64,000 nucleotides of DNA, taken from Caldilinea sp. CFX5. GTDB taxonomy: Bacteria; Chloroflexota; Anaerolineae; Caldilineales; Caldilineaceae. The notes under the pieces are model-generated. The model had not been told where the DNA came from. It searched no databases and saw only the letters and a program-made list of their open reading frames with translations. The stretch covers positions 62,001-126,000 of the forward strand of contig QWII01000037.1 in the NCBI GenBank assembly GCA_021405325.1, in the 5' to 3' direction. This document shows, piece after piece, positions 15,886 through 46,971 of this stretch. Within the stretch, counting starts at the first letter, position 1, and each line of letters opens with the position of its first letter. Both the position numbers and the translations under genes were made by a program.

Positions 15886-15906
15886 TGGTTCACCTCCAGT
15901 GGTTGG

Positions 15907-15994
15907 GTAGTTGGTTCGCCTGCCCGGTGGTTTCGACAAGCTCAACCACCGTTGGTTGAGCCTGTCGAAACCACCGGGCGAACCAACCAACTAT
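15907..15994. repeat. Palindrome with TTTCGACAAGCTCAACCA core, between permease genes
   Basis: Arms 15907-15948 and 15952-15994 are inverted copies with small differences. The innermost sequence is GGTTTCGACAAGCTCAACC facing GGTTGAGCCTGTCGAAACC. The stop codon of the YraQ-like gene (15991-15993) is in the right arm. Confidence 0.85.
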
Positions 15995-32320: not shown

Positions 32321-32438
32321 TGATCCGCTCCGTCGTTCCAGCATCACCAAGTTTCTGGCTAGATTCTACTAAAAGTTGCGACAAAGTTCAACCAAGGGGC
32401 AATGACCGGGTCTATTTCAAGTTAGGGGCGCGTTTTAT

Positions 32439-32492
32439 CCGAACGGCAAGCGTTAGCGACCCGCTGTCGGGTCGCTAACGCTTGCCGTTCGG
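32439..32492. repeat. Perfect 25 bp stem-loop upstream of operator P1
   Basis: Arms 32439-32463 and 32468-32492 match perfectly around CTGT. They contain GCGACCCG and AACGGCAAGCG. It lies between the regulator remnant and the GATCGC repeats, where the other two loci have none. Confidence 0.9.
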
Positions 32493-32524
32493 AAATTGCC
32501 CCAAAGTTGATATGCACCCGCAAT

Positions 32525-32579
32525 GATCGCACGCCGGATCGCGCCAAGGGACGGTGGCGGATCGCTGCTCGCCTATCCT
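32525..32579 (+). promoter_or_regulatory. GATCGC-repeat activator promoter P1
   Basis: GATCGC starts at 32525, 32537 and 32560 (steps of 12 and 23), and a -10 box TATCCT starts at 32574, 14 bp after the last repeat. The spacing is the same as at P2 and P3. No -35 consensus is present, as expected of an activator-dependent promoter. The repeat expected at 32513 is absent. It drives the membrane-protein/epimerase/carotenoid operon from 32643. Confidence 0.8.
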
Positions 32580-32642
32580 GTAGAGGAAGTCGGTACCCAA
32601 TTGAATCGATTGAATCGATGAAACACAAGAAAGGAAACCAGC

Positions 32643-33056
32643 ATGACGCAGTCAAAACTACGCTTTGTCAAAGTGGTCATGGCCTTAAACGCTATTGTGA
32701 ATGGAACGGCCGGCGTTGCGCTGCTGCTGGCGCCCACCTGGTTTTTTACCTATCTGGGGGACTTTCCGCCCTTTAATCAGCATTACATGGGCGATGCCGG
32801 CGCTTTTGTACTGCCGTTGAGCATCGGCTTGATCTACGCCATGCGCCAGCCGCAACGTCATCGCTTCTGGATCGGTATCGTGGCGTTCAGCGGCCTATTG
32901 CATACCGCCAATCATTTTTATGATGATGCCTTGCACAACTGGGACGCGCGCCATCTCTTTGGCTCCACGTTGCCCTTGTTGGTGCTGGCGCTCTTACTGC
33001 TCATCGCCTGGGTTCAGTTAACGCAGTTAGCGGACAGCAAAGATTATAGCGCATAA
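32643..33056 (+). CDS. Four-helix membrane protein of unknown function
   Basis: 137 residues, four hydrophobic segments (VVMALNAIVNGTAGVALLLAP, AFVLPLSIGLIYAM, FWIGIVAFSGLLHTANHFY, LFGSTLPLLVLALLLLIAWV). A HxxxHFYDD-like loop (HTANHFYDDALHNWDARH) between helices 3 and 4 has clustered His and Asp. It resembles small DUF-type membrane proteins, but I cannot name the family. First gene of the operon behind promoter P1; AAAGGAAACCAGC precedes ATG 32643, and the epimerase gene follows by 11 bases. Confidence 0.85.
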   Translation: MTQSKLRFVKVVMALNAIVNGTAGVALLLAPTWFFTYLGDFPPFNQHYMGDAGAFVLPLSIGLIYAMRQPQRHRFWIGIVAFSGLLHTANHFYDDALHNWDARHLFGSTLPLLVLALLLLIAWVQLTQLADSKDYSA

Positions 33057-33067
33057 GGAGGAACGAT

Positions 33068-34051
33068 ATGAAGATTTTTATTGCCGGCGCCACCGGCGCC
33101 CTCGGTCGCTGGGTGACGCCCAAATTGATTGCCGCGGGCCATCAAGTGGTTGGCTTGAGCCGTTCGCCGCAGAACCACGCCTGGTTAAGCGCACAACAGG
33201 CCATCCCCCGAACCGGCGATCTGTTCAACGCCGCCCAGATGCGCCAGCTCACCGCCGATTGTGACGCCATTCTACACCTGGCCACCGCTATCCCCACCAA
33301 GTCGCGCACCACCTTGCGCGACTGGCAGATGAATGACCGCATTCGCCGTGAAGGGACGCGCATTCTGGTGGATGCTGCTTGCCACCATCAGTGCCAACTC
33401 TATCTGCAACAGAGTCTCACCTTGCTCTATGGCGACCAGCAGGGCGCCTGGGTCGATGAAACAACGCCTATCCCAGCCCGTCAGGCACGCGTGACCCAAT
33501 CGGCGCAGGAGATGGAACGCATCGTGCAAGAGACCACGGCGAAGGCCGGCCTGCCCAGTGTCATCTTACGTTTTGGCACCTTTTATGCCCCGGATGCGGC
33601 GCATACGCAAGCGATGTTTGGCGCGCTCAAAAAGGGCTTTTTTCCAATCATCGGGCGGGGAGACAATTACTCCAACTTGACCCACCTAGCGGATGCTGCG
33701 ACAGCTATTGTCAAAACGGTGGCCGCGCACCAGGCTATCCACGGGCAAACCTTCAATGTCGTTGACGATGAACCAGTGACTTACCAAACATTGATGACAT
33801 TTATTGCCAGCCAGTTGGATGCGCGCACACCGATGCATCTTCCGGTTTGGGTCAGCAAGCTGGCCGTCGGCGCACATTTGGTCGAGAACTTGACGACCTC
33901 TGTCCGTTGTCGCAACCAGAAATTCAAAGCAGCCACGGAATGGCAACCCAAGTACGCCACCTATCGCCAAGGCATGATAGCCGCCATCGACGCCTGGCAA
34001 CGTCAGGTCGATCCGGCGCAACAACACACGCGCTTACAAGGAAATAGCTAG
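33068..34051 (+). CDS. NAD-dependent epimerase/dehydratase (extended SDR)
   Basis: 327 residues. Rossmann motif IFIAGATGALGRWVTPKLIAAGHQVVGLSR, then LHLATAIPT and a long C-terminal substrate part with ILRFGTFYAPDA and NVVDDEPVTYQTL. The usual YxxxK catalytic pair is not clear: the segment after QQSLTLLYGDQQG has no obvious K three residues after a Tyr, so this may be an atypical, NmrA-like or non-catalytic member. It lies second in the P1 operon, with the carotenoid gene 9 bases downstream, so a role in modifying a lipid or carotenoid is possible (inference). Confidence 0.87.
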   Translation: MKIFIAGATGALGRWVTPKLIAAGHQVVGLSRSPQNHAWLSAQQAIPRTGDLFNAAQMRQLTADCDAILHLATAIPTKSRTTLRDWQMNDRIRREGTRILVDAACHHQCQLYLQQSLTLLYGDQQGAWVDETTPIPARQARVTQSAQEMERIVQETTAKAGLPSVILRFGTFYAPDAAHTQAMFGALKKGFFPIIGRGDNYSNLTHLADAATAIVKTVAAHQAIHGQTFNVVDDEPVTYQTLMTFIASQLDARTPMHLPVWVSKLAVGAHLVENLTTSVRCRNQKFKAATEWQPKYATYRQGMIAAIDAWQRQVDPAQQHTRLQGNS

Positions 34052-34060
34052 GAGGAAATC

Positions 34061-35410
34061 ATGACAACACAACTCTATCAGGAAACAGAGTACAGAACAA
34101 CCACGGCGAACATAAAGCAGCAGGACAAGACGCCGACATCAACAAGCAATCGCCTGCCGCTCTATTTGGCCTTGATCCCATTGGGACTGCTGGTCTATCA
34201 AGACATACTGGTGACAGCCGGCAATCTCCCCACATTGCCGGTGAGCGAAGCCGGCGTGGCCATGTTTGTCGCCCTTTTCAGCCTGTTACACAGCTTCTAC
34301 CTGTTGGGCTGGCGCAATACGCTGGTGATGTTTGGCATCACAGCGGTTGTCTCCTGGGGCTTTGAGCAAGCCGGCGTGGCAACCGGTCTGATCTACGGCG
34401 CCTACCACTATGGCGAGGCGCTTGGTCCCAAGCTGGGCCATGTCCCCTATGCCATTCCTGTGGCCTGGTATAGTATGCTCTACCCCAGTTACGTCATGGC
34501 GCTCTTGCTGACCGATGGTTCCGTGGGTCATGCCCGTTTGGGACTAGGGAGCATTGTACGGCAGGCGTTGGTCGGCGGCATGGTGATGACGGCGTGGGAT
34601 GTACTGGTAGACCCGCTCGCTTCCGGCCCCAATGCGCTTTCGTGGGTGTGGGAACAGGGCGGGGAGTTTTATGGCGTGCCGACGCAGAACTTTGCCGGTT
34701 GGGTCTTGACTGCTTTTACGGTGATTCTGCTCTATCGCCTTTACGAACGCCGTTTCCCTGCCCACCCGCTGGGAGCGCAGACGCGGCTGGTATTGGCGCT
34801 GCCGCTGATCGTCTATGGGCTGGTGGCCGTGCAGATGATGTTGCGCCATGACACCCCCAGCGAGTGGGTGGTCTTGACCGCCTTTGTCATGGGTTTTCCG
34901 TGGCTGGCGGCATTCAGTCAACTCTTTCGCCCGCCATTGACAGACGATGCGTCAGCCAGCGCCGACGCACAACCTGCCTGGTGGCAGCATTTTCAGGCCC
35001 AGGGTTACTATGTTCGTTATGCCATGCTGCTTACCCTGTGCATGGGCATGGGGCTGCACATCACCCACCTGATCGTCGGGCGCGAACGGTTTCTGCAAGA
35101 GGTGCTAACGCCCAATGTGGATCGCCTGTTGGCGCTGTTGATTGCCTACAGCGCGCTGACGGGCTGGCTGGCCTGGCGACGGTTCAACCTACCGACCCGC
35201 TGGCAGCGCCTACTCTATGGACTGTTGGTGATCTATTTTACGAGCAGCCTTGTCGTTCATGGGCAAACCTTTATCACGGGTGACGTCGCGCCAGTGATTC
35301 GCCTCTTCCCGGAAAACTACAGTGGCTTTATCCTGGTGGTGATGGCAGCAATGGCGCTCTTTATCGGTCAGTTACGTTTCGTTGCCAAGGAGGGGGATCA
35401 TGTGGTTTAA
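34061..35410 (+). CDS. DUF422 carotenoid biosynthesis (CruF-like) membrane protein with C-terminal extension
   Basis: 449 residues. The first 250 follow the CruF/bisanhydrobacterioruberin hydratase pattern: SWGFEQAGVATGLIYGAYHYGEALGPKLGHVPYAIPVAWY, AWDVLVDPLA, WVWEQGGEFYGVPTQNFAGWVLTAF and LLYRLYERR. Relatives add water across terminal carotenoid double bonds. The last 190 residues add about five more membrane helices (ACLEQ-free, with HITHLIVGRERF and VHGQTFI), not usual for the family. It overlaps the next gene by 11 bases. The operon has no phytoene synthase or desaturase here. Confidence 0.87.
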   Translation: MTTQLYQETEYRTTTANIKQQDKTPTSTSNRLPLYLALIPLGLLVYQDILVTAGNLPTLPVSEAGVAMFVALFSLLHSFYLLGWRNTLVMFGITAVVSWGFEQAGVATGLIYGAYHYGEALGPKLGHVPYAIPVAWYSMLYPSYVMALLLTDGSVGHARLGLGSIVRQALVGGMVMTAWDVLVDPLASGPNALSWVWEQGGEFYGVPTQNFAGWVLTAFTVILLYRLYERRFPAHPLGAQTRLVLALPLIVYGLVAVQMMLRHDTPSEWVVLTAFVMGFPWLAAFSQLFRPPLTDDASASADAQPAWWQHFQAQGYYVRYAMLLTLCMGMGLHITHLIVGRERFLQEVLTPNVDRLLALLIAYSALTGWLAWRRFNLPTRWQRLLYGLLVIYFTSSLVVHGQTFITGDVAPVIRLFPENYSGFILVVMAAMALFIGQLRFVAKEGDHVV

Positions 35411-35801
35411 AGTTTTGGCGCTTACCATCGCGCTCATTTGTGTCGGCAAGGCTGTGATCGCCTTAGCCGCGCCCAGCCTCTTCTACGGGTTTCGCCGGCA
35501 ACAATATGATGCGATCCGCATTCCCATAAGCATTACCGTGATGCCGCTCTTGGTGACCACCCTGGCGGCGACAGCCTGGTATGCCACCCTCTTCCACTAT
35601 GTGGCGTGGGGGTGGGTGGTGACTGCCTTTCTCAGCGTTTTTGCCGTACTGGGTCTCAAGAATCTGTGGCGCTGGTCTGCCCACCGCACGGCGTTATCAC
35701 GGGCTATCGCCACAGCCAAGGCGGAGACGCGGGTGCGGGTCGATGGCGGCATTTTGGGCGTCGGGGTTGTTTTTTTGCTGTTGGGTCTGTTGGTTTATTG
35801 A
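35400..35801 (+). CDS. Small membrane protein of the carotenoid operon
   Basis: 133 residues from ATG 35400 (AAGGAGG upstream), overlapping the preceding stop (35408-35410), so translation is coupled. Three to four membrane segments: MWFKVLALTIALICVGKAVIALA, ISITVMPLLVTTLAATAWYAT, WGWVVTAFLSVFAVLGL and GVVFLLLGLLVY. A basic loop (RWSAHRTALSRAIATAKAETRVR) lies on the inner side by the positive-inside rule. No family recognised; the context makes it part of the P1 operon. Confidence 0.82.
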   Translation: MWFKVLALTIALICVGKAVIALAAPSLFYGFRRQQYDAIRIPISITVMPLLVTTLAATAWYATLFHYVAWGWVVTAFLSVFAVLGLKNLWRWSAHRTALSRAIATAKAETRVRVDGGILGVGVVFLLLGLLVY

Positions 35802-35816
35802 AGCAAGGAATAAGAT

Positions 35817-36230
35817 ATGGCAATCAGAGCACTTTCCCGCCAGCCGCCAATGGGCAAGCGGCTCTTTACCCTACACGGTCTTTTTCTACTGCTGGCCGGC
35901 AGCGTACAATTGCTCTTAGAAGGCATCGGCCATTTTGGGCAGATTGGCCCCTATGCCACGCTCTTTGGCAACTCGCCCTATACCATCGGCTTTGTCGAAG
36001 CGCATGGGTTGGCGCTCTTGATTGGCCTGGTACTCTGGCGGGCCGGTCACATGGGGCCAACTGTCCAAGATGCGTGGTTGGGAACTGCGGTTTCCCTGTT
36101 GTTAGGTGGCGCCAACCTGCTCTTCTGGCCGAGCTTTGTCGCCTTTGACATGGTTGCGCCTGGCGTGGTTGCGACGATGTTCCATCTGATTTTTCTGGTC
36201 GGTTATCTACGTTGGTTGCGCTATCATTAA
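35817..36230 (+). CDS. Membrane protein of unknown function
   Basis: 137 residues with four hydrophobic segments (LFTLHGLFLLLAGSVQLLLEGIG, VEAHGLALLIGLVLWRAGHM, AVSLLLGGANLLFW, GVVATMFHLIFLVGYLRWL). GCAAGGAATAAGAT precedes ATG 35817, and the previous stop is 16 bases away. Not recognised. The LLLEGIGHFG and FVEAHGLALL phrases recall DUF4383-like small membrane proteins, but only loosely. Fifth gene of the P1 operon. Confidence 0.78.
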   Translation: MAIRALSRQPPMGKRLFTLHGLFLLLAGSVQLLLEGIGHFGQIGPYATLFGNSPYTIGFVEAHGLALLIGLVLWRAGHMGPTVQDAWLGTAVSLLLGGANLLFWPSFVAFDMVAPGVVATMFHLIFLVGYLRWLRYH

Positions 36231-36251
36231 AAACCGAAAGAGGTGCTACTC

Positions 36252-36929
36252 ATGCCACTGCCCAAAAACCTGATGCCGGCTGACCTCGCTTTGTCGGACG
36301 CGATGACGGTCATTTTGCATGGCTCCTACGCTCGTGGCGATTTCACCGCCCATTCCGACATCGATCTGCATGGGATCACGCCGCTCTTAGCAGATTCCAC
36401 GCCCTCATTCAAGGTGGCGGCGATCAACGGCTATCGCGTCGAAGTACACATCAGCAGCGAGGCCGCCGTTCACCAAAAGCTGCGCCAACGCCCCGCTTGG
36501 GCGCATTCATGGCTGCGCGCAGAACATCTCAGTGGTGATCCACAGGTAACACAACGGCTGGTACACTCTGCGCAAGCAGTGCTGGCGGCGTATCATGTAC
36601 CGCCAGCAGAAATCCGGGAAACTGCGCATTGGCTAACCAGCGCCGTGCAAAAGATAGTGGACGCCCGCTCAACCGGCGACCTGCATTATGCCGGTTATCT
36701 GGTTGCCACCAACACCTGGGAGTTGTTATGCGGGCTATGGCAGGTGAATGGCTTACCCATCCCTGCCGCCAAGCTCACCTTTCTGTTGACCCCGAGCTTG
36801 CCACAGTTACCGCCCGACTTTCCGCAATACTTCAGGCAGCTTTGCGGCGGTGACCCAGAGGAACGTGTGGACGTATATCTGGCCCTCGGTGCATGGGTCC
36901 TTAAGCAATTTGACCGTTGCACTGGTTAG
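36252..36929 (+). CDS. Nucleotidyltransferase-fold protein
   Basis: 225 residues from ATG 36252, which has AAAGAGGTG six bases upstream. The N-terminal domain has HGSYARGDFTAHSDIDLHGI, the GS...D-x-D motif of DNA polymerase beta-type nucleotidyltransferases. A helical C-terminal part follows, like minimal nucleotidyltransferase (MNT)/KNTase proteins and adenylyl- or antibiotic-transferases. No HEPN partner gene is adjacent, so it need not be a toxin-antitoxin component. It ends 4 bases into the convergent BTAD gene, which overlaps its stop. Confidence 0.84.
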   Translation: MPLPKNLMPADLALSDAMTVILHGSYARGDFTAHSDIDLHGITPLLADSTPSFKVAAINGYRVEVHISSEAAVHQKLRQRPAWAHSWLRAEHLSGDPQVTQRLVHSAQAVLAAYHVPPAEIRETAHWLTSAVQKIVDARSTGDLHYAGYLVATNTWELLCGLWQVNGLPIPAAKLTFLLTPSLPQLPPDFPQYFRQLCGGDPEERVDVYLALGAWVLKQFDRCTG

Positions 36930-39900
36930 GGGTAGCATGTGTCTGCTAAAACTTGGGTAACAACAGTTTCTAGCAGATTCGTCAGCGCTTGTTGACTGGC
37001 CGACGCGCTGACAGACGCGGCAAGTGGCTCCAACCCGGCGAAAAGGTTCCTGGCACTTTGACGCGTGTGGTAATCACTGGCGGGATGGGTAATAATCAAC
37101 GGAAGCCAAGTTACGATGGAAGCTGGCGGATCGCTTGCTAGGGGGTGCGTCACGCTACGCAGGTGCGCCAGCCCGCAGAGCGCTTCGAGCATTAGCTTGG
37201 GGAATTGCAATGGTTGCGCGATGACCAATACCGTCCGCCAATGCGTTTGCGCCATCTGGGGCTGGGCGCACGCCGCCATCAGCCACCCCAGTTGGTTGTG
37301 AACAAGCGCCTGCCCCATACGGTCGCCGATGGTTTGACGCACGGTCAAGCTTTCGTGTAACAACGTTTGCGCTTCGGTGCGTTGCTCCTCGCTCTGGGCG
37401 GTCAAGGTGAGTAACGCACCCAACTGAAACAACGTTTGCGCCAGCGCCCAGGCGTCGCCAAGCGGGCGAATGACCACCAGTTCTGCCCGCAATTGCGCAA
37501 TGATTTCCGTAAGTTGGGGGGAACGGCGTTGATGCGCCAGCCGCCCGACATATCCCAGCGCCACGGCTCGATAGCGATTTTCGCCGCCAGCCACGAGAAT
37601 TTCCAAGCTGGCGCTTAGGTGATGGGCCGCTTGCGCATAATCGCCTTGATCATAGGCCAGGACGCCAAGAGAAACCTGTGTGCCGGCAGCAAACAATAGT
37701 TGGTTGGCGCTACGCAGCCAGTGCAGACTGGCAGTCAGCAGCGTGGCGGCTTCGGCATAGTCGCCACGCTGATTGGCAAGCAGACCGAGCAGTTGCCTTG
37801 CCATCCCCGCATCGCGTTCAAAACCAGCGGCAGGGACAGCTTCCTGTTCGAGCAACTGTAAACAGCGCTGGCAATTTGCTCTGGTCGCCATAAGATCGCT
37901 CAAATAATAGTGAAATAACCCCAACCCCAGGTAGACCCGCCCTAAGACCAACGGATGCTGTGGATCTGTCGGCGTCGACTGCGCCGCTTCAAGGCAGGTG
38001 GCCGCACGGCGAAAGAGGTCAATCCCCTCATGGGGCCAGCAACGCCAGGCATAATAGAGACAAAGTGACCAGGCATAGCGGCCAAGGGCGCTGACCGCCA
38101 AGGCGCCCCCGGCGGCAATCGCATAGAGCCAACCCGTGCGAATGTTGTCGGCTTCATCCTTCACGGCGAGGAGCGCGGCCAAGCCTTGGCCATTGGTGAA
38201 CTTGGCCTCTTGCAAGGTGACAAAGTCCGCATAATATTGACAGTGGGCCACATGCGCCTGTGTCTGCGCAGTTGGGGTTTGGGCCAGCTTTTCGGCCAGA
38301 AACTGGCGCAGCAACTCATGCAGTTGGTAGCGTCCCGTTTCCGTCAACCGCAGCAATGATTTCTCGACAAAGGCCGCCAGCGTCAGCAGGGACGCACCCG
38401 CCACCTGCTCGGCGGCGGTCTGGCGAAAACCACCCTGAAAGACGGCCAGCCGGGCCAGGATCGCCTGCTCGTGCGCTTCCAGACGTTGCCAACTCTGCTC
38501 CAACACCACCCGCATACTACGCTGTCGCCCTGGCGCGTTCTGATGCCGGGCGGTGAGAATATCCAGGTTGCGTTCGATCTCATCGGCCACTTGCCCCACC
38601 GTCAACACCTTGAGCCACGCCGCCGCCAGTTCGAGCGCTAACGGCATCCCCTCCACCAACTGACAGATGCGCAACACCTGATGTTGTTCCGTGGCCGACG
38701 CCAGTGAGAAGTTCTGGCTGGCGCGGCGAGCGCATTGATCAAAGAGGTAAACGGCGTCAGCGCGTTGGGTCAAATCCGCATTGGACAATTCGTCGGTCGG
38801 ATAGGCCAGCCCGCCGATCTGATGAAACCACTCCTCGCGTAGGTTGAGCGCTTCGCGTGAAGTCACCAGCATTTTGAGGTGGGGTGCGGTCGCCAACAGC
38901 GCAGCGATCAACTCCGTACTTTCCGTTTGCACAGGTGGGGTAAGCAATTGTTCAAAGTTGTCCAACACCAATAACCGTTGCTGGGGTCGCAAGTGATCCA
39001 ACAACTGCTGCTGCGGTGCGGTGTTGCTCACCAGGCGCACCCCCAGCGCATCGGCAATGGCCGTGATAATTCCGCCCGGCGTCTGCACAGCCTCCAGCGG
39101 CACGAAGAAAAGACCGTCGTCAAAACGTGGATAGTGGATAGTGGCTGGTGGCTGGTGTGCGCGGTCAGCCGTGCTGGACGCTTCTAAAATCGCCTGCGCG
39201 GCATGTAACGCCAATCGCGTCTTGCCCATACCACCTGGCCCGACCAGCGTCAACAGCCGACAGCCAGGGTCTTGTAAGCGGTCAAGGATTGCCGCGACTT
39301 CCTGTTCGCGCCCGATGAAGGGGGTGGTCTGCGGTGGCAGGTTGTGAGAGGGTGACAAGGTGACAGGGTGAGGCTTCGACGTGAGTTCAGCCGAACGGGG
39401 CAACAAGGTGGCTGATACTTCGGCGTGAGCGCCGGTTGCCTCCCAGGCGCGAACGCTTGTCGAAGTCACCTCGTCACCCTGCCACCTTGTCACCTTGTCA
39501 GCCTTTGACTTCTCCGGTTCGGGAAGACGTCGCGCCCGGATCGCCTCGAAGATGGCGGCGGTTTCCGGTTCCGGCTCGACGCCCAGTTCTTCATTGAGCA
39601 GGCGTACACACTCTTGATATTGCCGGAGGGCGGCGGCCTGTTGACCGGCCCAGGCATAGAGTTGCATCAGCAGGCGGTGAACTGGTTCGTGCAACGAATC
39701 GACGAGCAGCCAGCGGCGGGCATAGGTGATGGCGGTCTCATATTCACCCCGTTCACGGTGCAGGCGCACCAGTTTCTCCAAAGCGCCAGTCAATTCCCGG
39801 CGCAGGCTGTCGGTGTGAAAAAATTGCCAATCGTCAAATTCAGGACAGTCGGAGAGGGTGAAGCCGGCCAGGAAGTCGCCCTGGTAGAGATCAATCGCCG

Positions 39901-40285
39901 CCGTCAACGGTTCCAGACAAGCGTTACACACCTCATCCGGGGTGTGACCGTGGGTGCGCGGGGCAGCCAGGTGGTGGCGGAACTGCTCAACATCGACCAC
40001 AATCGTCGCCTGGTCTGCCAAGGCCACCTGTTCGCGGTCACTCTCGATCCAGCCTTCGCCCAACGCACTGGTCAGCGTATAAAGCTCGCGCCGTAGCGAT
40101 GCGCGCGCTGCCTCTTGACCGGAATCGGGCCAGAAGAGGGTAGCGAGTAGGTCACGGCGCTGGGGTTGGCGGGTCATCGCCAGGTAGATCAAAGGCGCCA
40201 GCACCTTGCGTCGGCTCAACTCTACAGGTTTACCCGCCACTTCCACATGGGGCGCCCCCAGCAGATAGAGGTTCAGACGCGTCAT
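36926..40285 (-). CDS. BTAD/SARP-type ATPase regulator 1 (STAND), palindrome in linker
   Basis: 1119 residues from ATG 40285, with AAGGAGGA upstream. An N-terminal winged helix (MTRLNLYLLGAPHVEVAGKPVELSRRKVLAPLIYLAM, with DLLATLFWPDSGQEAARASLRREL) is followed by a BTAD domain to about 260. The linker, residues about 262-311, is encoded by an in-frame palindrome (39352-39500). An NB-ARC/AAA NTPase follows with Walker A near 345 (LVGPGGMGKTRLAL), Walker B (LLVLDNFEQLL) and MLVTSREALNL. The rest is TPR-like helical repeats to the end. BTAD/SARP proteins bind direct repeats upstream of -10 boxes. It is divergent from P2. Confidence 0.93.
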   Translation of the reverse strand: MTRLNLYLLGAPHVEVAGKPVELSRRKVLAPLIYLAMTRQPQRRDLLATLFWPDSGQEAARASLRRELYTLTSALGEGWIESDREQVALADQATIVVDVEQFRHHLAAPRTHGHTPDEVCNACLEPLTAAIDLYQGDFLAGFTLSDCPEFDDWQFFHTDSLRRELTGALEKLVRLHRERGEYETAITYARRWLLVDSLHEPVHRLLMQLYAWAGQQAAALRQYQECVRLLNEELGVEPEPETAAIFEAIRARRLPEPEKSKADKVTRWQGDEVTSTSVRAWEATGAHAEVSATLLPRSAELTSKPHPVTLSPSHNLPPQTTPFIGREQEVAAILDRLQDPGCRLLTLVGPGGMGKTRLALHAAQAILEASSTADRAHQPPATIHYPRFDDGLFFVPLEAVQTPGGIITAIADALGVRLVSNTAPQQQLLDHLRPQQRLLVLDNFEQLLTPPVQTESTELIAALLATAPHLKMLVTSREALNLREEWFHQIGGLAYPTDELSNADLTQRADAVYLFDQCARRASQNFSLASATEQHQVLRICQLVEGMPLALELAAAWLKVLTVGQVADEIERNLDILTARHQNAPGRQRSMRVVLEQSWQRLEAHEQAILARLAVFQGGFRQTAAEQVAGASLLTLAAFVEKSLLRLTETGRYQLHELLRQFLAEKLAQTPTAQTQAHVAHCQYYADFVTLQEAKFTNGQGLAALLAVKDEADNIRTGWLYAIAAGGALAVSALGRYAWSLCLYYAWRCWPHEGIDLFRRAATCLEAAQSTPTDPQHPLVLGRVYLGLGLFHYYLSDLMATRANCQRCLQLLEQEAVPAAGFERDAGMARQLLGLLANQRGDYAEAATLLTASLHWLRSANQLLFAAGTQVSLGVLAYDQGDYAQAAHHLSASLEILVAGGENRYRAVALGYVGRLAHQRRSPQLTEIIAQLRAELVVIRPLGDAWALAQTLFQLGALLTLTAQSEEQRTEAQTLLHESLTVRQTIGDRMGQALVHNQLGWLMAACAQPQMAQTHWRTVLVIAQPLQFPKLMLEALCGLAHLRSVTHPLASDPPASIVTWLPLIITHPASDYHTRQSARNLFAGLEPLAASVSASASQQALTNLLETVVTQVLADTCYP
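39352..39500. repeat. In-frame intragenic palindromic element
   Basis: GTGACAAGGTGACAGGGTGA (39352-39371) faces CACCCTGCCACCTTGTCACC (39475-39494). Between them lie GGCTTCGACGTGAGTTCAGCC and CTTCGGCGTGAG...CTTGTCGAAG, the same words as at 445 and 48364. It encodes a low-complexity linker of about 50 residues in regulator 1; the domains on both sides stay in frame. Confidence 0.82.
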
Positions 40286-40369
40286 CGGCTTTCCTCCTTG
40301 CACTTGGATCTCGCCAGGTTATCGACCCATTGTACCCGATCCTATCAAGAAATTCAAACTCGTTTAGCG

Positions 40370-40436
40370 GATCGCAATTATGATCGCACCTGGGATCGCT
40401 CTATGGGACAAAGACGGATCGCTCGCCCGCTATACT
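40370..40436 (+). promoter_or_regulatory. GATCGC-repeat activator promoter P2
   Basis: GATCGC starts at 40370, 40382, 40394 and 40417 (steps 12, 12 and 23), and TATACT starts at 40431, 14 bp after the last repeat. The bases between (GGGACAAAGACGGATCGCT) match the pattern at P1 and P3. It lies between regulator 1 and the 56-residue protein gene, which start 85 bp and 71 bp away. Confidence 0.88.
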
Positions 40437-40506
40437 GAAAGCAGCCGTAGCCAATCCAAGGGTAAGTAGAGCAACCAATAAGGAACCAATAAGGAGAGGG
40501 ATAACC

Positions 40507-40677
40507 ATGATCAATCAGTTCGCGTTTGAACTTGCCTACACACTGCACAGCAGGCGCCTGCAACAGGCTGCAACCCGTCGCTTACAGCGCGAAGCGATGG
40601 CCGGTCGGCCCAAACGATCGCTGGTGGGAGGAATGGCAAGCTTTTTCAACCATGTTTTCAACTATATTTTCAAATAG
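40507..40677 (+). CDS. 56-residue basic protein of unknown function
   Basis: MINQFAFELAYTLHSRRLQQ starts at ATG 40507, with AAGGAGAGGG upstream and a stop at 40675-40677. It is basic and amphipathic, and ends in MASFFNHVFNYIFK, an aromatic-rich tail that might sit at a membrane. The leader has a tandem AACCAATAAGGA duplication just before the ribosome site (40467-40490). It is the first gene behind P2, and the FG-GAP gene follows 17 bases later. The tight spacing, strong ribosome site and operator support a real gene. No family recognised. Confidence 0.72.
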   Translation: MINQFAFELAYTLHSRRLQQAATRRLQREAMAGRPKRSLVGGMASFFNHVFNYIFK

Positions 40678-40694
40678 AGAGAAAGGAAACAATC

Positions 40695-42635
40695 ATGAAC
40701 AAATCAACAAAACTGCCAACAGTGGTGCGACTCGGCCTGAGTCTCATGCTGCTTACGGCGACCATCCAGCCCGTGTTGGCGCAAGATGAACCGGCAGCCG
40801 TGACTGTGGTCGAACAACCGATGGCGTCAGCCGATCTGGCCGATCAGCCGGTCTGGCTGCCATTTACGGCGCCGGCTGCGGAAACCGGCCCTGAGCCGGC
40901 AAGCGCAGAGTTTGCTGCACCACAGGGTGAAGAGGATGGCCTGGCCACGTTCACCACACTCGACGCCGTCGAACCGGGTACGATGAGTGAGTATGCCTTG
41001 ACCGATGAGGATCGTGTCGAGCAACCTACATCAGATGTCGAACAGTCAGTACCGTTGAACAAGCGACTCTTCCTGCCGCTCGTTCAGGGTGGTGAGGACA
41101 AGGACGTTGCTGCTGCCGATACCGCTGAGGTCGCCAGTCTGTCGGCCAATCCCCAGGCGCGTGGCGACTTCAATGGGGATGGCTACAGTGATCTGGCGGT
41201 GGGTGTACCCTTTGAAGACTTCGCCAATGTGGCGAACAGCGGGCTTATCCAGGTCATCTACGGTTCGGCGGCTGGTCTAACATCGACCAACAATGCCATG
41301 TTTGGCCAATCGACCTTGACCGACAAGGATGGGGTAGAACTGAACGACTGGTTCGGTCAGGTGTTAGCGGCGGCTGACTTTAATGCCGATGGCTATGACG
41401 ATCTGGCGATTGGGGTGCCGCAGGAAGATTGGGGCAGCAGCAGCTTTCTGGTGCAAAGAGATGCCGGCGTGGTTGAGATTCTCTACGGCACGGCCAACGG
41501 GTTGACCAGCGCCAACCGCCAGATCTGGCACCAGGATTCCCTCTTCATTGCCGACAAGGTGGAGAGTGGCGATCAATTTGGCGCAGCGCTGGCGACCGGC
41601 GATTTTAACCTGGATGGCTTTGCGGATCTGGCGATCGGCGTCCCGCGCGAGGATCTAGACAGCCTTACCGATGCCGGGGTTGTCCATGTGCTGCATGGCT
41701 CGGCGGCGGGCATCACGGCGACGGGTAGCCAGATGTGGCATCAAAATGTGACCGGCATTATCGAAGAGGCGGAAAGCGCTGAATTTTTTGGCAGCGCCCT
41801 GGCCGCCGGCAACTTTAACGGCAAGGATGGCGATGATCTGGCCATTGGCGTTCCCGCGGAAACAATCGGTAAGATTAAGGCAGGTGGCGTCAACATCATC
41901 TTTGCCCAGCCGGGGAAGGGGTTGGGGTATAACCGCAATGGCCTGATCAGCCAGGATACGGCCGGCATCATCGGCGTCTCTGAAACTGGTGATCGCTTGG
42001 GCGCAAGTCTGGCTGCCGGCAACTTCAACGGCGATGGCTACACGGATCTTGCCGTCGGCGCGCCGGGGGAGACCCTGGAAGGCACAACCGATATTCGTGG
42101 CGCCGGCGCCGTCAATGTGATCTATGGCGCCAGCACCGGTCTGGTTGCGGCTGGCAATCAGGTGTGGACGCAAGATAGCCCCGGCATCTATGACCGTGCC
42201 GAAGGCAGTGACAACTTTGGCAGCGTGCTGGCGACCGGTGACTTCACCAAAGATGGCCGTGATGATCTGGTGATTGGTGTGCCGGTAGAAAGCTTCCTGT
42301 CAACGGTTGACGGCATTGTCCACCTCATCAACGGTGGCCCCAACGGCCTGACCGCGGTGGGTAATCAGCTCTATCGCCCGGATATGCCCGGCACAGGCGC
42401 TACCCAAACAGGTCCGCAATTCTTCGGACAGCGGCTCTTTGTCGGTGATTTTGATGGCAATGGACAGGCTGATCTGGGCATCGGCATTCCGTTCAAAAAT
42501 GTGAATGGCGTCATGGCTGCCGGCGCTGTGCTGGTTATCTACCACAACGGGCTGGCCTTTAGCGCCCATCTATGGCATCAGGGAATGCCCGGCTTTTTGG
42601 AGCTTCCCGAAGAGCTTGATCAGTTTGGTTATTAA
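40695..42635 (+). CDS. Secreted FG-GAP (integrin alpha-like) repeat protein
   Basis: 646 residues. A Sec signal peptide (MNKSTKLPTVVRLGLSLMLL, cleavage near VLAQ) is followed by about 110 residues of acidic, low-complexity sequence and seven FG-GAP repeats from about 155 on. Each has D-x-N-x-DG-Y/x-DLA-x-G-x-P-x-E, for example RGDFNGDGYSDLAVGVPFED and AGNFNGDGYTDLAVGAPGE, with Ca-binding D-x-D/N-x-D loops. It should fold as a seven-blade beta-propeller outside the cell. Second gene of the P2 operon. An adhesion or binding role is inferred from the fold. Confidence 0.92.
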   Translation: MNKSTKLPTVVRLGLSLMLLTATIQPVLAQDEPAAVTVVEQPMASADLADQPVWLPFTAPAAETGPEPASAEFAAPQGEEDGLATFTTLDAVEPGTMSEYALTDEDRVEQPTSDVEQSVPLNKRLFLPLVQGGEDKDVAAADTAEVASLSANPQARGDFNGDGYSDLAVGVPFEDFANVANSGLIQVIYGSAAGLTSTNNAMFGQSTLTDKDGVELNDWFGQVLAAADFNADGYDDLAIGVPQEDWGSSSFLVQRDAGVVEILYGTANGLTSANRQIWHQDSLFIADKVESGDQFGAALATGDFNLDGFADLAIGVPREDLDSLTDAGVVHVLHGSAAGITATGSQMWHQNVTGIIEEAESAEFFGSALAAGNFNGKDGDDLAIGVPAETIGKIKAGGVNIIFAQPGKGLGYNRNGLISQDTAGIIGVSETGDRLGASLAAGNFNGDGYTDLAVGAPGETLEGTTDIRGAGAVNVIYGASTGLVAAGNQVWTQDSPGIYDRAEGSDNFGSVLATGDFTKDGRDDLVIGVPVESFLSTVDGIVHLINGGPNGLTAVGNQLYRPDMPGTGATQTGPQFFGQRLFVGDFDGNGQADLGIGIPFKNVNGVMAAGAVLVIYHNGLAFSAHLWHQGMPGFLELPEELDQFGY

Positions 42636-42660
42636 TTAGCTTATCTGTAACTACCAAGCC

Positions 42661-42719
42661 AGAAACCAGGTTTTTCACCTGCAAACCAGGCTGATTGGTT
42701 GAACAAAAACCTGGTTTCT
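42661..42719 (+). terminator. Stem-loop after the FG-GAP gene
   Basis: AGAAACCAGGTTTTT (42661-42675) pairs with AAAAACCTGGTTTCT (42705-42719), a perfect 15 bp inverted repeat with T-rich ends and a 29-base interior. It lies 25 bp after the stop of the P2 operon and looks like its terminator. Confidence 0.7.
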
Positions 42720-42798
42720 TCACCTGGGGTTAGTCGTTATGCTGATCTGACCTAGGTCGCTCGCCTACAAGAGGCGGAAAACTATAGCTGGGCCATGC

Positions 42799-42895
42799 CT
42801 AGGTTCTGTTGACATTTGTGACGCCTACACCTGTCAGGTTTTGGAAACCTGACAGGTGTACCACCGGCTGATTCTGAAATGTCAACAAAACCTAG
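42799..42895. repeat. Nested palindrome with ACCTGTCAGGT inner stem
   Basis: The outer stem is CTAGGTTCTGTTGACATTT (42799-42817) with its one-mismatch complement at 42877-42895. The inner stem TACACCTGTCAGGTTT and its complement lie at 42826-42860. The inner stem is the same as in the identical elements at 13393 and 57873, but the outer stem is different. The BTAD regulator 2 stop codon lies in the right arm. Confidence 0.88.
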
Positions 42896-45800
42896 TCAAT
42901 AGTGAACGGCAGTAAGGCCTGTGCCTGTTGTAAATCCGGTGTGTCGAACCCCTCAGTGAACCAGCCATAGATCTCGGCGAGCCGTCGGATGGCCTCCTCA
43001 CCTTTGCCTTGTTGTTGCCATAACTGGCTGAGACTCATGGCGATGCGCAGTTCTAGCGACTTGGCCCGTTGGCGGCAGGCGATGTCGAGCGCCTGTCGCA
43101 GGGCCACTTCCGCTTCGGCAATGCGCTGCTGTGCGCCGGGCAGCAAGAGTAACACACCCCGCATTCGATGGATCTCGGCTTCGTAAAAGAAGGCGCGACT
43201 GCTCTGCACGAGCGCCAGCGCCTCGTCTAGGGTCGCCAGCCCCTCCGTCACCTGGCCGACACGGCCATAGGCCTCGGCCAAGAGGGTAAGGAAGTAGGGT
43301 TGATCGATCTTAGCGCCGGTCGCCTGGCAAGCCGCGATGCCTTGACGCAAGAGGGTAATTCCTGCGGCTTGCTCTCCTTGCATGACCAAGGTCCAGCCCC
43401 AGATGATCGTCGCCGTGGCACAGCGATAGGGAAAGCCATGTTCGGTCGCAAGCTTGATCGTCAACTCGGCTTGTGTGCGCGCCAACGCCACCTCCCGCCG
43501 GTATTGACGGACGAAGGTCGCCTGCTCGTGGGCATGAACCAAACCAAAGGAATGGGTCAGGCGCTGCGCCAGGCGTACTGCATTCTGCGCTTTTTCCAGC
43601 GCCTGGGCAGGATAGCCCAAAAACCAGAGCGACTGGGCCGCCCAATAATAGCAGGCCACCCCTAGATCCTCCCCATAAAAGGCATCCAACGCCAAATGTT
43701 GCTCGGGGATATAAAGCGCCAGCCCTTGTTCAGCGTGCTCAACCGACTGGGCGAACGATCCCTGGTGGAACGTGGAGCAGGCCAACAGCATATGCGATTG
43801 TAAGAGGGGGCCTGTTTCCTGGACAGAGTGTGATAGGTGCAGACGTTCTTCCATCAACCGCTGCGATTTCTGATATTCGCCGCGAAACTCATAAAGTACG
43901 GCCAAACCGTATAGGATCGAGGAAAGCTGTTTGACATCGCCCAACTGCTGGCATAAGGCTTGGGCGCGCAGATATGCCTGCTCCACCGCCGGCGCCATCC
44001 ACCCGTTAGTCGCCAGCAAAGCCGGGGCCAGGGCGGCTTGCAGCGCCAGTTCACCCTGCTGCTGCTCGGTGGTGTTGGGCAAGTTACGTAGGAGTTCCAG
44101 CCCGCGGTTGATCTGTTCGATGGCTTCACACGGGGCGCTGCGCTGCAAGGCGTGTTGTGCGGCAAGCTGCAAATAATGGATGGCGCGGCCAAAATCGCGC
44201 CCTTGCACAAAATGCACAGCCAACTCCGCCGCCCGCTCTTGCTCCTGACCACTATAGCCCCGTTCGATCCGTAGCCCGATCTGTTGATGAAGGCGCACCC
44301 GACGACTGATCGGCACACGGTTGTATAATACCTCCTGATAGAGATGATGGATAAAGCTCAAACGTGCCGAGACCGTTCCATCCGGCCAATCGCTGATCCC
44401 TTCGGCGCGCAAAAAATGACCACGGCGCGCCAGGGTGAGACAGCGCTCCTCCACGTCTTCCTCGGCAAAGGTGACAGTGCTTGCAACCGCCGCCACCGCA
44501 AACTCCATTCCAACCACACTGGCTGCTTCCAGTATCCTCTGCTCTTCTGCGGGCAGTTGGTTGAGTTGCTGCTCAATCAACTCGCGCAGGTTTTCCGGCG
44601 CGCCGCTGTGCAAGGTTGCCAACTCGGCCTGTAACCGCCATTGCCCTTCTTGCTCCACCAACGCCCCTTGCCCAATCCACGCCTCCACTACATTCTGCAT
44701 AAAGAGCGGATTGCCATTAGTGCGTTGATGGAGCAAGAGGGCAAGTTCAGCGGGGAGCGTCGACTGGGGAAAGCGGGCGTCGATATACTCTTGCGCCATT
44801 GCGGCGGTCAGATAGGGCAAGGCCAATTCGACACAGTGTCCTCGCACCCGCAGTTCCTGCATCATCGTGTGCAACGAGTGGTCGCGCAATTGGGCATCGA
44901 CTGCACGATAGGTGCCGATCACCATCAGGCGTGCGGGTTCCTGCCGACGCGCCAGATAGCCCAGCAGATCGAGGGTCGAGTAATCGCTCCAGTGTAGATC
45001 TTCCAACACCAGAATCAGGGGATGGTGGGTGGTGAGGATTTCCAGCATCTCGACCATTTCGCGCAACATGCGCTCACGCGTGGCCCCTAACACCCGCTGT
45101 TGCAGGGCAGTCAACTCCTCGGCGCTGACCAACCAGGGCAATTGCACCAGCCAGGTGGGCGCGCGCTGCGCAAGGAGCGAAACCAACGTCGGCCCACTCG
45201 GTGCGCGACAGAGCCGGCCAATCGCCTCCAACACCGGCATATAGGCTTCGCCCGTCCCCCGCAATTCAAGACACTGGCCTTGCCCGATCCACACCGCGGT
45301 TTTGCTGCTGGCTTCGGCCAGAAAGCGATTGACCAGGGTGGTCTTGCCCAGCCCAGCCTCGCCGGTGATGCAAACCACACGACGCTTGCCGGCCAGGGCT
45401 TGAGCCAGCCAGGTGTGTAACGATTGCAGTTCTTGCGTCCGCCCAACGGTGGGTACACCTTCCAGCGTCGCCGATAGCATCGGGTTGGCGCGCAAATCCG
45501 AGAAAAAGGACGGGATGCGCTCAGGCGACTCTGCTGACGCCTGGGAAAGCGGCTGGCTTTTGGCTGGTGGCGGTGTGGCAACAACGGGCGCGGGCGCGGT
45601 TGTACGCCCCTGTGACAATGCCGTTGGCGCGCTTGGGTTGGGCGGCGGATGCCAGCGGCGGGTGCGGATCGCCTCGAAAAGATTGGTGGTCTCCGCCTCT
45701 GGCTTGACGCCTAGCTCCTCCTCAAGCAGACGGCTACATTCTTGATATTGCCGGAGCGCCGCCCCTTGATGACCGGTGAGAGCATACAATTTGATCAGTT

Positions 45801-46413
45801 CGCGATGGGCGGGTTCATGCAGCGAATCGAGCAGTAACCACCGGCGGGCCACAGCAATGGCCGCATCGTATTCATTGTGGCTGCTGTGCAGGCGCACCAA
45901 TCGTTCCAGCGCCCCGGCCAGGTCGCGGCGTAGACTTTCGACTTGGAAGAATTGCCAATTATCAAACTCAGGACAATCGGCGAGGGTGAAGCCGGCCAGA
46001 AAATCCCCCGTGTAGATCGCTACGGCAGCGGTAAGCGGTTCTCGACAGGCTGCACAAATCTCATCAATCGGGTGATTATGGCGCCGCGTGGCGGCCAGGT
46101 GGTGGCGAAATTGCTCCACATCGATCCAGAGTGCCGCCTCCGGGTTTAGCCTCACACTTTCGCGGTCGCTCTCGATCCAGCCGTCACCCAAGGCGCTGGT
46201 GAGCGTGAAGAGTTCGCGGCGCAACGAAGCCCGCGCCGCCTCTTGGCCTGATTCGGGCCAGAAGAGGGTGGCCAACGTGTCGCGCCGCTGCGGTTGACGG
46301 GTAACGGCCAGGTAGACCAAGGGGGCCAGCACCTTACGCCGGCTCAAGACCACTGCTTGGCCGTCTAGCTCGATACGTGGGGAACCCAGCAAATAGAGGT
46401 TGAGGTGTGTCAT
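42892..46413 (-). CDS. BTAD/SARP-type ATPase regulator 2 (STAND, AAA with long TPR tail)
   Basis: 1173 residues from ATG 46413 (GGAGCG upstream). The winged helix MTHLNLYLLGSPRIELDGQAVVLSRRKVLAPLVYLAV and BTAD domain (to about 260) closely match regulator 1. A Pro/Ala-rich linker (about 285-330) precedes an AAA/STAND ATPase of a different subtype: VGRTQELQSLHTWLAQAL, Walker A near 355 (CITGEAGLGKTTLVNRFL), and Walker B LILVLEDLHWSD. Then come helical repeats with AKSLELRIAMSLSQLW near the end. The frame extends upstream past the operator and is not expected to be used there. It is divergent from P3. Confidence 0.93.
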   Translation of the reverse strand: MTHLNLYLLGSPRIELDGQAVVLSRRKVLAPLVYLAVTRQPQRRDTLATLFWPESGQEAARASLRRELFTLTSALGDGWIESDRESVRLNPEAALWIDVEQFRHHLAATRRHNHPIDEICAACREPLTAAVAIYTGDFLAGFTLADCPEFDNWQFFQVESLRRDLAGALERLVRLHSSHNEYDAAIAVARRWLLLDSLHEPAHRELIKLYALTGHQGAALRQYQECSRLLEEELGVKPEAETTNLFEAIRTRRWHPPPNPSAPTALSQGRTTAPAPVVATPPPAKSQPLSQASAESPERIPSFFSDLRANPMLSATLEGVPTVGRTQELQSLHTWLAQALAGKRRVVCITGEAGLGKTTLVNRFLAEASSKTAVWIGQGQCLELRGTGEAYMPVLEAIGRLCRAPSGPTLVSLLAQRAPTWLVQLPWLVSAEELTALQQRVLGATRERMLREMVEMLEILTTHHPLILVLEDLHWSDYSTLDLLGYLARRQEPARLMVIGTYRAVDAQLRDHSLHTMMQELRVRGHCVELALPYLTAAMAQEYIDARFPQSTLPAELALLLHQRTNGNPLFMQNVVEAWIGQGALVEQEGQWRLQAELATLHSGAPENLRELIEQQLNQLPAEEQRILEAASVVGMEFAVAAVASTVTFAEEDVEERCLTLARRGHFLRAEGISDWPDGTVSARLSFIHHLYQEVLYNRVPISRRVRLHQQIGLRIERGYSGQEQERAAELAVHFVQGRDFGRAIHYLQLAAQHALQRSAPCEAIEQINRGLELLRNLPNTTEQQQGELALQAALAPALLATNGWMAPAVEQAYLRAQALCQQLGDVKQLSSILYGLAVLYEFRGEYQKSQRLMEERLHLSHSVQETGPLLQSHMLLACSTFHQGSFAQSVEHAEQGLALYIPEQHLALDAFYGEDLGVACYYWAAQSLWFLGYPAQALEKAQNAVRLAQRLTHSFGLVHAHEQATFVRQYRREVALARTQAELTIKLATEHGFPYRCATATIIWGWTLVMQGEQAAGITLLRQGIAACQATGAKIDQPYFLTLLAEAYGRVGQVTEGLATLDEALALVQSSRAFFYEAEIHRMRGVLLLLPGAQQRIAEAEVALRQALDIACRQRAKSLELRIAMSLSQLWQQQGKGEEAIRRLAEIYGWFTEGFDTPDLQQAQALLPFTID

Positions 46414-46490
46414 GATTTCGCTCCGGTCGGGTGCGCAACCACTGATCTTCTCAGCCGATTTTACTCGAAAGCGGGCAAAAGCCCAACTTA

Positions 46491-46557
46491 GATCGTAAAA
46501 ATGATCGCAGTTATGATCGCTACGAGCGACGGCGATGGATCGCTGGCCGGGTATAGT
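46491..46557 (+). promoter_or_regulatory. GATCGC-repeat activator promoter P3
   Basis: GATCGT at 46491 and GATCGC at 46503, 46515 and 46538 (steps 12, 12 and 23), with TATAGT at 46552, again 14 bp after the last repeat. It drives the small secreted protein and selenium-binding protein genes. The repeats lie 78 bp from the start of regulator 2 and 60 bp from the first target gene. Confidence 0.88.
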
Positions 46558-46600: not shown

Positions 46601-46897
46601 ATGAAACACCATGTAACCGCTTTTGTCCTGGCCCTGGTTCTGGCATTGACCGCTCTGCCGGTGCTGGCCAACGGCGCAGATCAAGCCAATGCCTGCTGGG
46701 GGCAAGCGACTGCCGTCTTTGCCCAAACCGGCGAGATGGGCAAACACGCCAGCCAGGAGCCAACGCCCCGTCTGGGGCTGCGCAACCTGGCCCGTGCGCT
46801 CTACGAAGCCGGCGTCATTGCCGATGACAGCATGGCGACGCTGGGCCAATTTGTCGCCGCTGAGTTGGGCTTGAGCATTGATGCTTGTATGGACTAG
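46601..46897 (+). CDS. Small secreted protein of unknown function
   Basis: 98 residues with a clear signal peptide (MKHHVTAFVLALVLALTALP, cleavage at VLA-N) and a mature part of about 74 residues with two cysteines (NACWGQ and DACMD) that could form a disulfide. The remainder is amphipathic helices (LGLRNLARALYEAGV). AAAAAGGAGACAC precedes ATG 46601. First gene behind P3, followed after a short hairpin by the selenium-binding protein gene. I do not recognise the family. Confidence 0.82.
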   Translation: MKHHVTAFVLALVLALTALPVLANGADQANACWGQATAVFAQTGEMGKHASQEPTPRLGLRNLARALYEAGVIADDSMATLGQFVAAELGLSIDACMD

Positions 46898-46907
46898 GCA
46901 AGTCGTG

Positions 46908-46940
46908 TGACGGTCACCGCTGCCGCAGCAGTGACCGTCA
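46908..46940. repeat. Hairpin within the P3 operon
   Basis: TGACGGTCAC and GTGACCGTCA flank CGCTGCCGCAGCA, itself self-complementary (GCTGC/GCAGC). It lies between the first two genes of the operon and could be an mRNA stabilising or partial-termination element. Confidence 0.55.
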
Positions 46941-46971
46941 GCCGCCAATCATTTCTAAAGGAGCTTTACTC

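What the first reader, a model, noticed from the sequence alone, without database searches (positions are those of the whole stretch)
32525..46557. Three promoters share one GATCGC repeat ruler beside paralogous BTAD regulators
P1 (32525, 32537, 32560), P2 (40370, 40382, 40394, 40417) and P3 (46491, 46503, 46515, 46538) carry GATCGC repeats at steps of 12, 12 and 23 bp. In all three the -10 box (TATCCT, TATACT, TATAGT) starts exactly 14 bp after the last repeat. P1 lacks only the outermost repeat. The interval before the last repeat also has a shared pattern (G-G/C-GAC...GGATCGCT). There is no -35 consensus. SARP/BTAD proteins are known to bind direct repeats spaced by about one helical turn just upstream of a -10 box. 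So these look like operators of the adjacent regulators, and possibly a cross-talking set. The three controlled operons (carotenoid-like membrane genes, 56-residue protein plus FG-GAP, and a small secreted protein plus SBP56) would form a regulon of envelope and redox functions.
Basis: partly seen in the sequence, partly recalled or inferred. Interest (0 to 1): 0.88.

Follow-up and report, generated by a model that had tools for sequence, protein, structure and literature searches.

The report
Shared activator operators for paired regulators
Three promoters in one stretch of bacterial DNA carry the same precisely spaced GATCGC repeats just before their start signals, which looks like a landing strip for two neighbouring regulators of a family known mainly from antibiotic-making Streptomyces.

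Summary
The repeat ruler is real. GATCGC-N6-GATCGC-N17-GATCGC-N8-TATNNT occurs at P1, P2 and P3 and nowhere else in the window. A scan that knew only the published SARP promoter rule, loosened to allow 12/23/24 steps, found these three alone. Flanks are unrelated. One correction: the outermost P3 repeat is GATCGT.

Best explanation: operators of SARP-type activators, read by BTAD1 and BTAD2. BTAD1's modelled N-terminal half folds like AfsR and EmbR; BTAD2 is 73% identical there. The 3' repeat lies 8 bp from the -10 box, as in SARP promoters. AfsR's two base-reading residues are changed alike in both proteins, and the half-site differs at the matching positions. The sensor halves show no BLAST similarity.

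Against or unresolved: spacing is 12/12/23, not 11/22. P1 is not divergent from a BTAD gene. The window's genome is not held and no close relative's promoter DNA was reachable. Thirty-four loci around more distant BTAD genes showed no such ruler. Regulon, cross-talk and function are inferred.

The parts
32525..32565 (+). P1 operator: GATCGC at 32525, 32537, 32560 (steps 12, 23)
32548..32553 (+). P1 degenerate -35-overlapping element GGGACG, ends 20 nt before the -10
   Evidence: sequence
32574..32579 (+). P1 -10-like box TATCCT
32643..36929 (+). Presumed operon downstream of P1: small hydrophobic protein (32643-33056, no Pfam family), NAD epimerase (33068-34051), Caroten_synth protein (34061-35410), two small hydrophobic ORFs (35382-35801, 35817-36230, no Pfam family), nucleotidyltransferase-like ORF (36243-36929)
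   Evidence: Pfam; ORFs; hydropathy
36926..40285 (-). BTAD1, large SARP-type regulator: winged helix plus BTAD, AAA ATPase, TPR. ORF extends to 40303; ATG at 40285 preferred
40329..40357 (-). Candidate BTAD1 promoter TTGAAT-N17-TACAAT, between the BTAD1 start and the P2 operator
   Evidence: consensus match only
40370..40422 (+). P2 operator: GATCGC at 40370, 40382, 40394, 40417 (steps 12, 12, 23)
40405..40410 (+). P2 degenerate -35-overlapping element GGGACA
   Evidence: sequence
40431..40436 (+). P2 -10-like box TATACT
40507..40677 (+). 56-residue protein, first gene after P2; one other relative found, 63 aa, 93% identical
40695..42635 (+). FG-GAP repeat protein with a signal-peptide-like start (by eye)
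42892..46413 (-). BTAD2, paralogue of BTAD1 in its first ~255 residues; its C-terminal part (AAA_16) shows no BLAST match to that of BTAD1 at 1e-5
46458..46486 (-). Candidate BTAD2 promoter TTGGGC-N17-TAAAAT
   Evidence: consensus match only
46491..46543 (+). P3 operator: GATCGT at 46491, GATCGC at 46503, 46515, 46538 (steps 12, 12, 23)
46526..46531 (+). P3 degenerate -35-overlapping element GCGACG
   Evidence: sequence
46552..46557 (+). P3 -10-like box TATAGT
46601..48366 (+). Genes after P3: 98-aa protein with a signal-peptide-like start (46601-46897), then SBP56 (within ORF 46885-48366)

Best explanation
The three rulers are operators for SARP-type activators, most likely BTAD1 and BTAD2. 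One winged-helix protomer sits on each half-site, whose core is GATCG(C). The 3' protomer lies between the -35 and -10 positions, close to the register used by Streptomyces AfsR, and can hold sigma region 4 and RNA polymerase at a promoter that has a fair -10 but no usable -35. The -35-overlapping position carries a degenerate half-site (G-N-GAC). The further two or three full half-sites upstream help cooperative loading. The C-terminal ATPase/sensor part gates each protein. BTAD1 and BTAD2 have nearly the same reading helix but strongly diverged sensor parts, so two inputs could converge on one operator code. Shown: the ruler, its rarity in the window, the fold of BTAD1 (as a predicted model), the residue/base correspondence and the sensor divergence. 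Inferred: binding, activation, cross-talk, control of P1, and identity of the signals.
For: (1) Exact ruler at three promoters with unrelated flanks, none elsewhere in the window. (2) Spacing of the 3' repeat to the -10 is 8 bp, the published SARP rule. A motif-agnostic scan with that rule returns only these sites. (3) P2 and P3 are divergent from the two BTAD genes, 84 and 77 bp from their likely start codons. (4) BTAD1 residues 1-257: AF2 pLDDT 92; the only 6 Foldseek PDB matches at E<=0.001 are chains of AfsR (8k60, 8hvr) and EmbR (2ff4, 2fez). AfsR and EmbR also match by sequence, beside a designed TPR protein. (5) AfsR repeats are CGTT(T/C)ATCGNN. Ours share ATCG, and base 5 is G in 11 of 11 while base 3 is variable. 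In AfsR, T88 contacts base 5 and R92 contacts base 3. Both BTADs have Arg at the T88 position and Thr at the R92 position: an Arg-for-G gain and loss of the T contact. (6) BTAD1 and BTAD2 agree at 9 of the 10 AfsR DNA-contact positions compared (Y/F at one backbone position).
Against: Steps are 12/12/23, not 11/22, although a review words the spacers more loosely as 4-15 nt, which admits the 12 step but not quite the 23. AfsR contact residues P79, T88, R94 and K95, said to be conserved in Streptomyces SARPs, are Q, R, T and S here. No ruler was found in 126,415 bases around 34 BTAD-gene loci, 30-54% identical. P1 is not next to a BTAD start. No promoter DNA from the same clade was reachable, so conservation is untested. 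The residue/base argument was made after seeing both sides, and the register differs from AfsR by about 1 bp if afsS uses a -12 start for its -10 (assumed). No binding or transcript data exist.
Confidence: 0.78

Rival explanations
1. Each BTAD binds only its own divergent promoter, or only one of the two proteins is active. The shared code reflects common ancestry rather than cross-talk, and P1 is a target of just one of them.
For: BTAD1 and BTAD2 are paralogues through the DNA-binding half, so common descent explains a common code. P2 and P3 have unrelated flanks, as expected after long separate evolution.
Against: Identical residues at both base-contact positions and identical GATCG cores give no visible basis for discrimination. 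P1 has the ruler without an adjacent BTAD start.
Confidence: 0.3
2. An OmpR/PhoB-type response regulator elsewhere in the genome, with a similar winged helix and 7+4 direct repeats, is the real reader.
For: Mycobacterial PhoP binds direct repeats of 7-bp motifs with a 4-bp spacer (abstract start of PMC4832192), and in Streptomyces PhoP competes with AfsR on the same repeats (passage). A sensor histidine kinase gene lies at 2302-4788.
Against: No receiver or response-regulator domain was listed for the 39 window ORFs scanned (smaller ORFs outside the finding were not scanned). Two of the three operators sit at BTAD starts. A half-site 8 bp from the -10 is the SARP register.
Confidence: 0.1
3. 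The MalT-like LuxR regulator at 49291-52137 reads the repeats.
For: It lies in the same neighbourhood (Pfam TPR_MalT and GerE). MalT boxes are recalled, not tested here, as G-rich direct repeats at promoters without a -35.
Against: No ruler lies upstream of it. Two operators track the BTAD starts. A LuxR-type site centred near -23 would be unusual (recalled).
Confidence: 0.04
4. The repeats are not operators: a mobile or methylation-related GATC repeat, or coincidence.
For: GATCGC contains GATC. The region has other short tandem repeats.
Against: Exact promoter register at all three sites, unrelated flanks, 0 of 180 simulations reaching the recurrence, and no other copies in the window. In the species-genome collection the ladder without a -10 was found at 92 sites in 89 stretches, and 0 of 92 had TANNNT in register; about one or two would be expected by chance (my estimate), so this is background rather than proof.
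Confidence: 0.03

Closest known systems
AfsR / afs box at the afsS promoter, Streptomyces coelicolor (PMC10936776: passages and section 7 read; PMC10972967: passages read)
   Same: Large SARP with ATPase and sensor parts; same fold for the BTAD1 model (Foldseek E 2e-10, TM 0.66); tandem direct repeats with an ATCG core; repeat between the -35 and -10; poor -35
   Different: Two repeats at 11 bp there, three or four exact repeats plus a degenerate one at 12/12/23 here; base 5 is G instead of Y and base 3 is free, with T88 and R92 replaced by Arg and Thr; probably Chloroflexota; the genes after the promoters are not evident antibiotic genes (no cluster search was run)
PimR (SARP-LAL) operator upstream of pimM, Streptomyces natalensis (PMC5930380: passages read)
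   Same: Three repeats cooperatively bound by a large SARP; lies in the space between regulator and target gene in the relatives named
   Different: CGGCAAG heptamers, 4-bp spacers; that operator does not overlap the -35
EmbR, Mycobacterium tuberculosis (PDB 2fez/2ff4)
   Same: Same winged-helix plus BTAD fold
   Different: FHA domain instead of ATPase/TPR; operator not compared here

Membership tests
SARP/BTAD regulators (proteins) | OmpR-type winged helix followed by an all-helical BTAD domain | tested here: met
   Pfam BTAD above cut-off in both; AF2 model of BTAD1 matches AfsR and EmbR. The winged helix gave no Pfam hit; it rests on the model. BTAD2 was not modelled.
Large SARP (AfsR-like, STAND) | C-terminal nucleotide-binding domain and TPR/sensor | tested here: met
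   BTAD1: AAA_16, AAA_22, NACHT and TPR_12 over cut-off, NB-ARC below it. BTAD2: AAA_16 over cut-off, no TPR family listed at E<=0.001, so for BTAD2 the sensor part is not shown.
SARP (Streptomyces sub-family) | DNA-contact residues Q48, W74, P79, T88, R94, K95 as in AfsR | tested here: not met
   W74 (and R87) kept; P79, T88, R94, K95 are Q, R, T, S; Q48 not compared. A divergent branch, not the Streptomyces sub-family.
SARP operator | Direct repeats, the 3' one 8 bp from the -10 element | tested here: met
   GATCGC-N8-TATNNT at all three
SARP operator | Repeats separated by 11 or 22 bp | tested here: not met
   Steps are 12, 12 and 23; a 10-bp step is published too, and a review gives spacers of 4-15 nt
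SARP operator | Operator overlaps a poor -35 region | tested here: met
   G-N-GAC, in a hexamer ending 20 nt before the -10, inside the ladder; assumes the -10 boxes are used
SARP operator | Bound by the SARP domain; activates transcription | not testable with these tools
   needs gel shift or in vitro transcription
OmpR/PhoB response regulators | Receiver domain | tested here: not met
   No receiver domain listed for BTAD1 or BTAD2

The most novel reading that the evidence does not exclude
In this probably Chloroflexota lineage one SARP reading head has been kept while its sensor part was swapped, so that several ATPase-gated regulators with different sensors converge on one multi-half-site operator code with a 12-bp pitch, forming an integrated regulon of non-antibiotic genes.
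Probability: 0.35. Interest if true: 0.7.

Novelty: new variant of a known kind. Interest (0 to 1): 0.55.

Why it matters
BTAD regulators are numerous: 3479 of 7998 scored candidates matched BTAD1's reading half at E<=0.001, and many of the 120 listed carry ATPase and TPR domains. None of the titles or abstract starts listed in my paper searches concerns a SARP operator outside Actinobacteria (open-licence papers only, lists capped). A predicted half-site, spacing and residue-to-base correspondence for a distant branch gives a rule that can be tested at once with two purified domains and three short DNAs, and a search pattern for assigning targets to these regulators.

Tried and rejected
Whole-genome test: the window's genome is not held.

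A scan of the species-genome collection for the ladder without the -10 (each repeat preceded by A, G or T) gave 89 stretches; none is titled Chloroflexota (two are only 'uncultured bacterium'). They hold 92 sites, of which 0 have TANNNT at +8. No second scan of that collection was allowed. Viral contigs: 28 stretches, not analysed further; two protein scans there found no relative.

L079's genome was searched too, with the Pfam BTAD family and then as the centre (2 weak matches, then none at E<=1e-30); the remaining 43 were not examined. With that actinobacterial genome (L079, by its title) as centre, 31 of 296 genomes had a BTAD relative at E<=1e-30, and 30 loci were fetched. In these and 4 further BTAD loci (34 in all) there is no GATCG ladder, and one GATCGC pair at step 12 or 23, not followed up. 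The upstream scan covered only those loci where a recognition-helix pattern was found (24 printed with a slightly different pattern; one search printed no count); the ladders it printed (L133, L136, and runs of N in L135) I judged by eye to be coding or GC-rich repeats.

Rejected: GATCAT ladders at 15608-15674 are a coding tandem array. Recent duplication of the promoters: 44 to 255 of 300 shuffles reach the flank scores. Rfam and tRNA scans of the window: nothing.

Full report
OBSERVATION. All repeat positions and the 14-bp distance from the last repeat to the -10-like box are right. One of 11 repeats is misquoted: 46491 is GATCGT. In the 64-kb window the ladder GATCG-N7-GATCG-N18-GATCG occurs three times on + and never on -, and GATCGCT-N7-TANNNT occurs only at the same three places. 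When the ladder plus -10 is scored over 21 positions, with the last repeat allowed one mismatch, the three sites have no mismatch and the next best site has six. The best of 60 simulated windows had three. In 180 simulated windows no 6-mer/step combination recurred three times. Six combinations in the real window do: this ladder, its reverse complement, and four from a coding tandem array at 15608-15674.

A MOTIF-FREE TEST. I wrote a scan that knows only the published SARP promoter rule: at least three exact copies of any hexamer at steps of 11, 12, 22, 23 or 24, the last one 8 bp before TANNNT. I chose the 12/23/24 steps after seeing the window, so this is not fully blind. In the window it returns the three claimed sites and nothing else on either strand. 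It returns nothing in 126,415 bases of 34 other loci that hold BTAD genes, 30-54% identical. The second result also counts against generality: whatever those more distant regulators bind, it is not an exact ladder of this kind within the DNA held (about 1.5 kb either side of the matched domain for most).

NOT SIMPLY RECENT COPIES. About 80 bp upstream and 60 bp downstream of the ladders align no better than shuffles in all pairs (44 to 255 of 300 shuffles reach the observed score). The ladders and the -10 are therefore what has been kept, together with G-N-GAC in the gap (6 of 17 gap columns invariant; probability about 6e-4 under independence, post hoc).

SURROUNDINGS. P2 and P3 lie in the divergent spaces upstream of two BTAD genes, 84 and 77 bp from the likely ATG codons (40285, 46413). 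Both BTAD genes have plausible promoters of their own on the other strand (TTGAAT-N17-TACAAT; TTGGGC-N17-TAAAAT; consensus matches only). P1 heads a different presumed operon, which ends convergently with BTAD1: a small hydrophobic protein, an epimerase, a Caroten_synth protein, two small hydrophobic ORFs and a nucleotidyltransferase-like ORF. P2 is followed by a 56-residue protein with one 93%-identical relative found and an FG-GAP protein. P3 is followed by a 98-residue protein with a signal-peptide-like start (judged by eye) and SBP56. The closest BTAD1 homologue with an organism name is from a Caldilineaceae bacterium (P0010, 70%), so the source is probably Chloroflexota; this was not tested further.

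THE READERS. The first 257 residues of BTAD1 were modelled at pLDDT 92 from a 29-sequence alignment. The only six PDB matches at E<=0.001 are chains of AfsR and EmbR, solved members of the SARP type. BTAD2 was not modelled. BTAD1 and BTAD2 are 73% identical over this half, while their C-terminal parts show no BLAST match to one another at 1e-5. Both proteins do contain an AAA_16-type ATPase by Pfam. A direct comparison extends the N-terminal match weakly to the P-loop region and otherwise gives at best a 28-bit stretch in the C-terminal parts, so these are best called strongly diverged or swapped. Relatives show a similar pattern: P0004 matches BTAD1 in both halves (91% and 82%), but P0006 matches at 84% in the first half and 31% in the second. 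I read this as shuffling of reading head and sensor; faster divergence of the sensor is not excluded.

RESIDUE AND BASE. The AfsR repeat is CGTT(T/C)ATCGNN (PMC10972967, passage). In the AfsR complex, R92 contacts the T at base 3 and T88 contacts the base pair at base 5 of the upstream repeat (PMC10936776, section 7). With the ATCG cores aligned, the 11 half-sites here are G at base 5 in 11 of 11 and mixed at base 3 (A4, C4, T2, G1). The ungapped alignment puts Arg at the T88 position and Thr at the R92 position of BTAD1, and one search shows the same letters in BTAD2. Loss of the Arg that reads base 3 goes with loss of preference there, and gain of an Arg at the residue that reads base 5 goes with an invariant G. 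This is a consistency argument made after the fact, on one aligned register; it is not a test. If the -10 of afsS starts at -12 (assumed), the two registers differ by 1 bp.

MECHANISM. By analogy with AfsR, whose domain dimer sits on a 22-bp box centred at -29.5 and holds sigma region 4 in place of a -35 contact, the 3' GATCGC protomer and a weaker one on G-N-GAC would form the polymerase-contacting pair, and the two or three upstream sites would add cooperative binding. PimR needs at least two repeats and its authors give three as the optimum. ATP-linked release from autoinhibition is shown for AfsR and only presumed here.

NOVELTY. Six searches of the open-licence library listed no paper on SARP operators in Chloroflexota and none using GATCGC as a SARP repeat. 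Some lists were capped (20 of 34, 20 of 23 and 10 of 104 papers shown), and only listings and abstract starts were seen apart from the three papers cited. Subscription papers were not searched. I rate it a new variant of a known kind: the operator logic is SARP, while the half-site, the 12-bp pitch and the probable phylum differ.

Noticed in passing
32438-32493: Perfect 26-bp inverted repeat with a 4-nt loop, just upstream of the P1 ladder; no run of T follows, no Rfam match, arms seen once each in the window. Possibly a terminator or a mobile short repeat.
   Followed up: partly
36926-40285 and 42892-46413: The two BTAD proteins share the DNA-reading half (73%) but their sensor parts show no BLAST match at 1e-5; a homologue (P0006) shows a similar contrast.
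   Followed up: yes
12634-12740, 39351, 39465-39505, 48376: A dispersed octamer repeat (AAGGTGAC family) recurs at several places, two of them inside the linker-coding part of BTAD1.
   Followed up: partly
11149-11297: Two arrays of 8-bp repeats (GTCGCGTA / TACGCGAC) facing each other between two acyl-CoA dehydrogenase genes, able to form a long hairpin.
   Followed up: no
15608-15674: 12-bp tandem array inside the DUF1980 ORF at 15010-15990, coding for a His-Asp run, next to an ArsP_1-type permease.
   Followed up: partly
49291-52137: A third large ATPase regulator, MalT-like with a LuxR helix-turn-helix, follows the SBP56 region but has no GATCGC ladder.
   Followed up: partly
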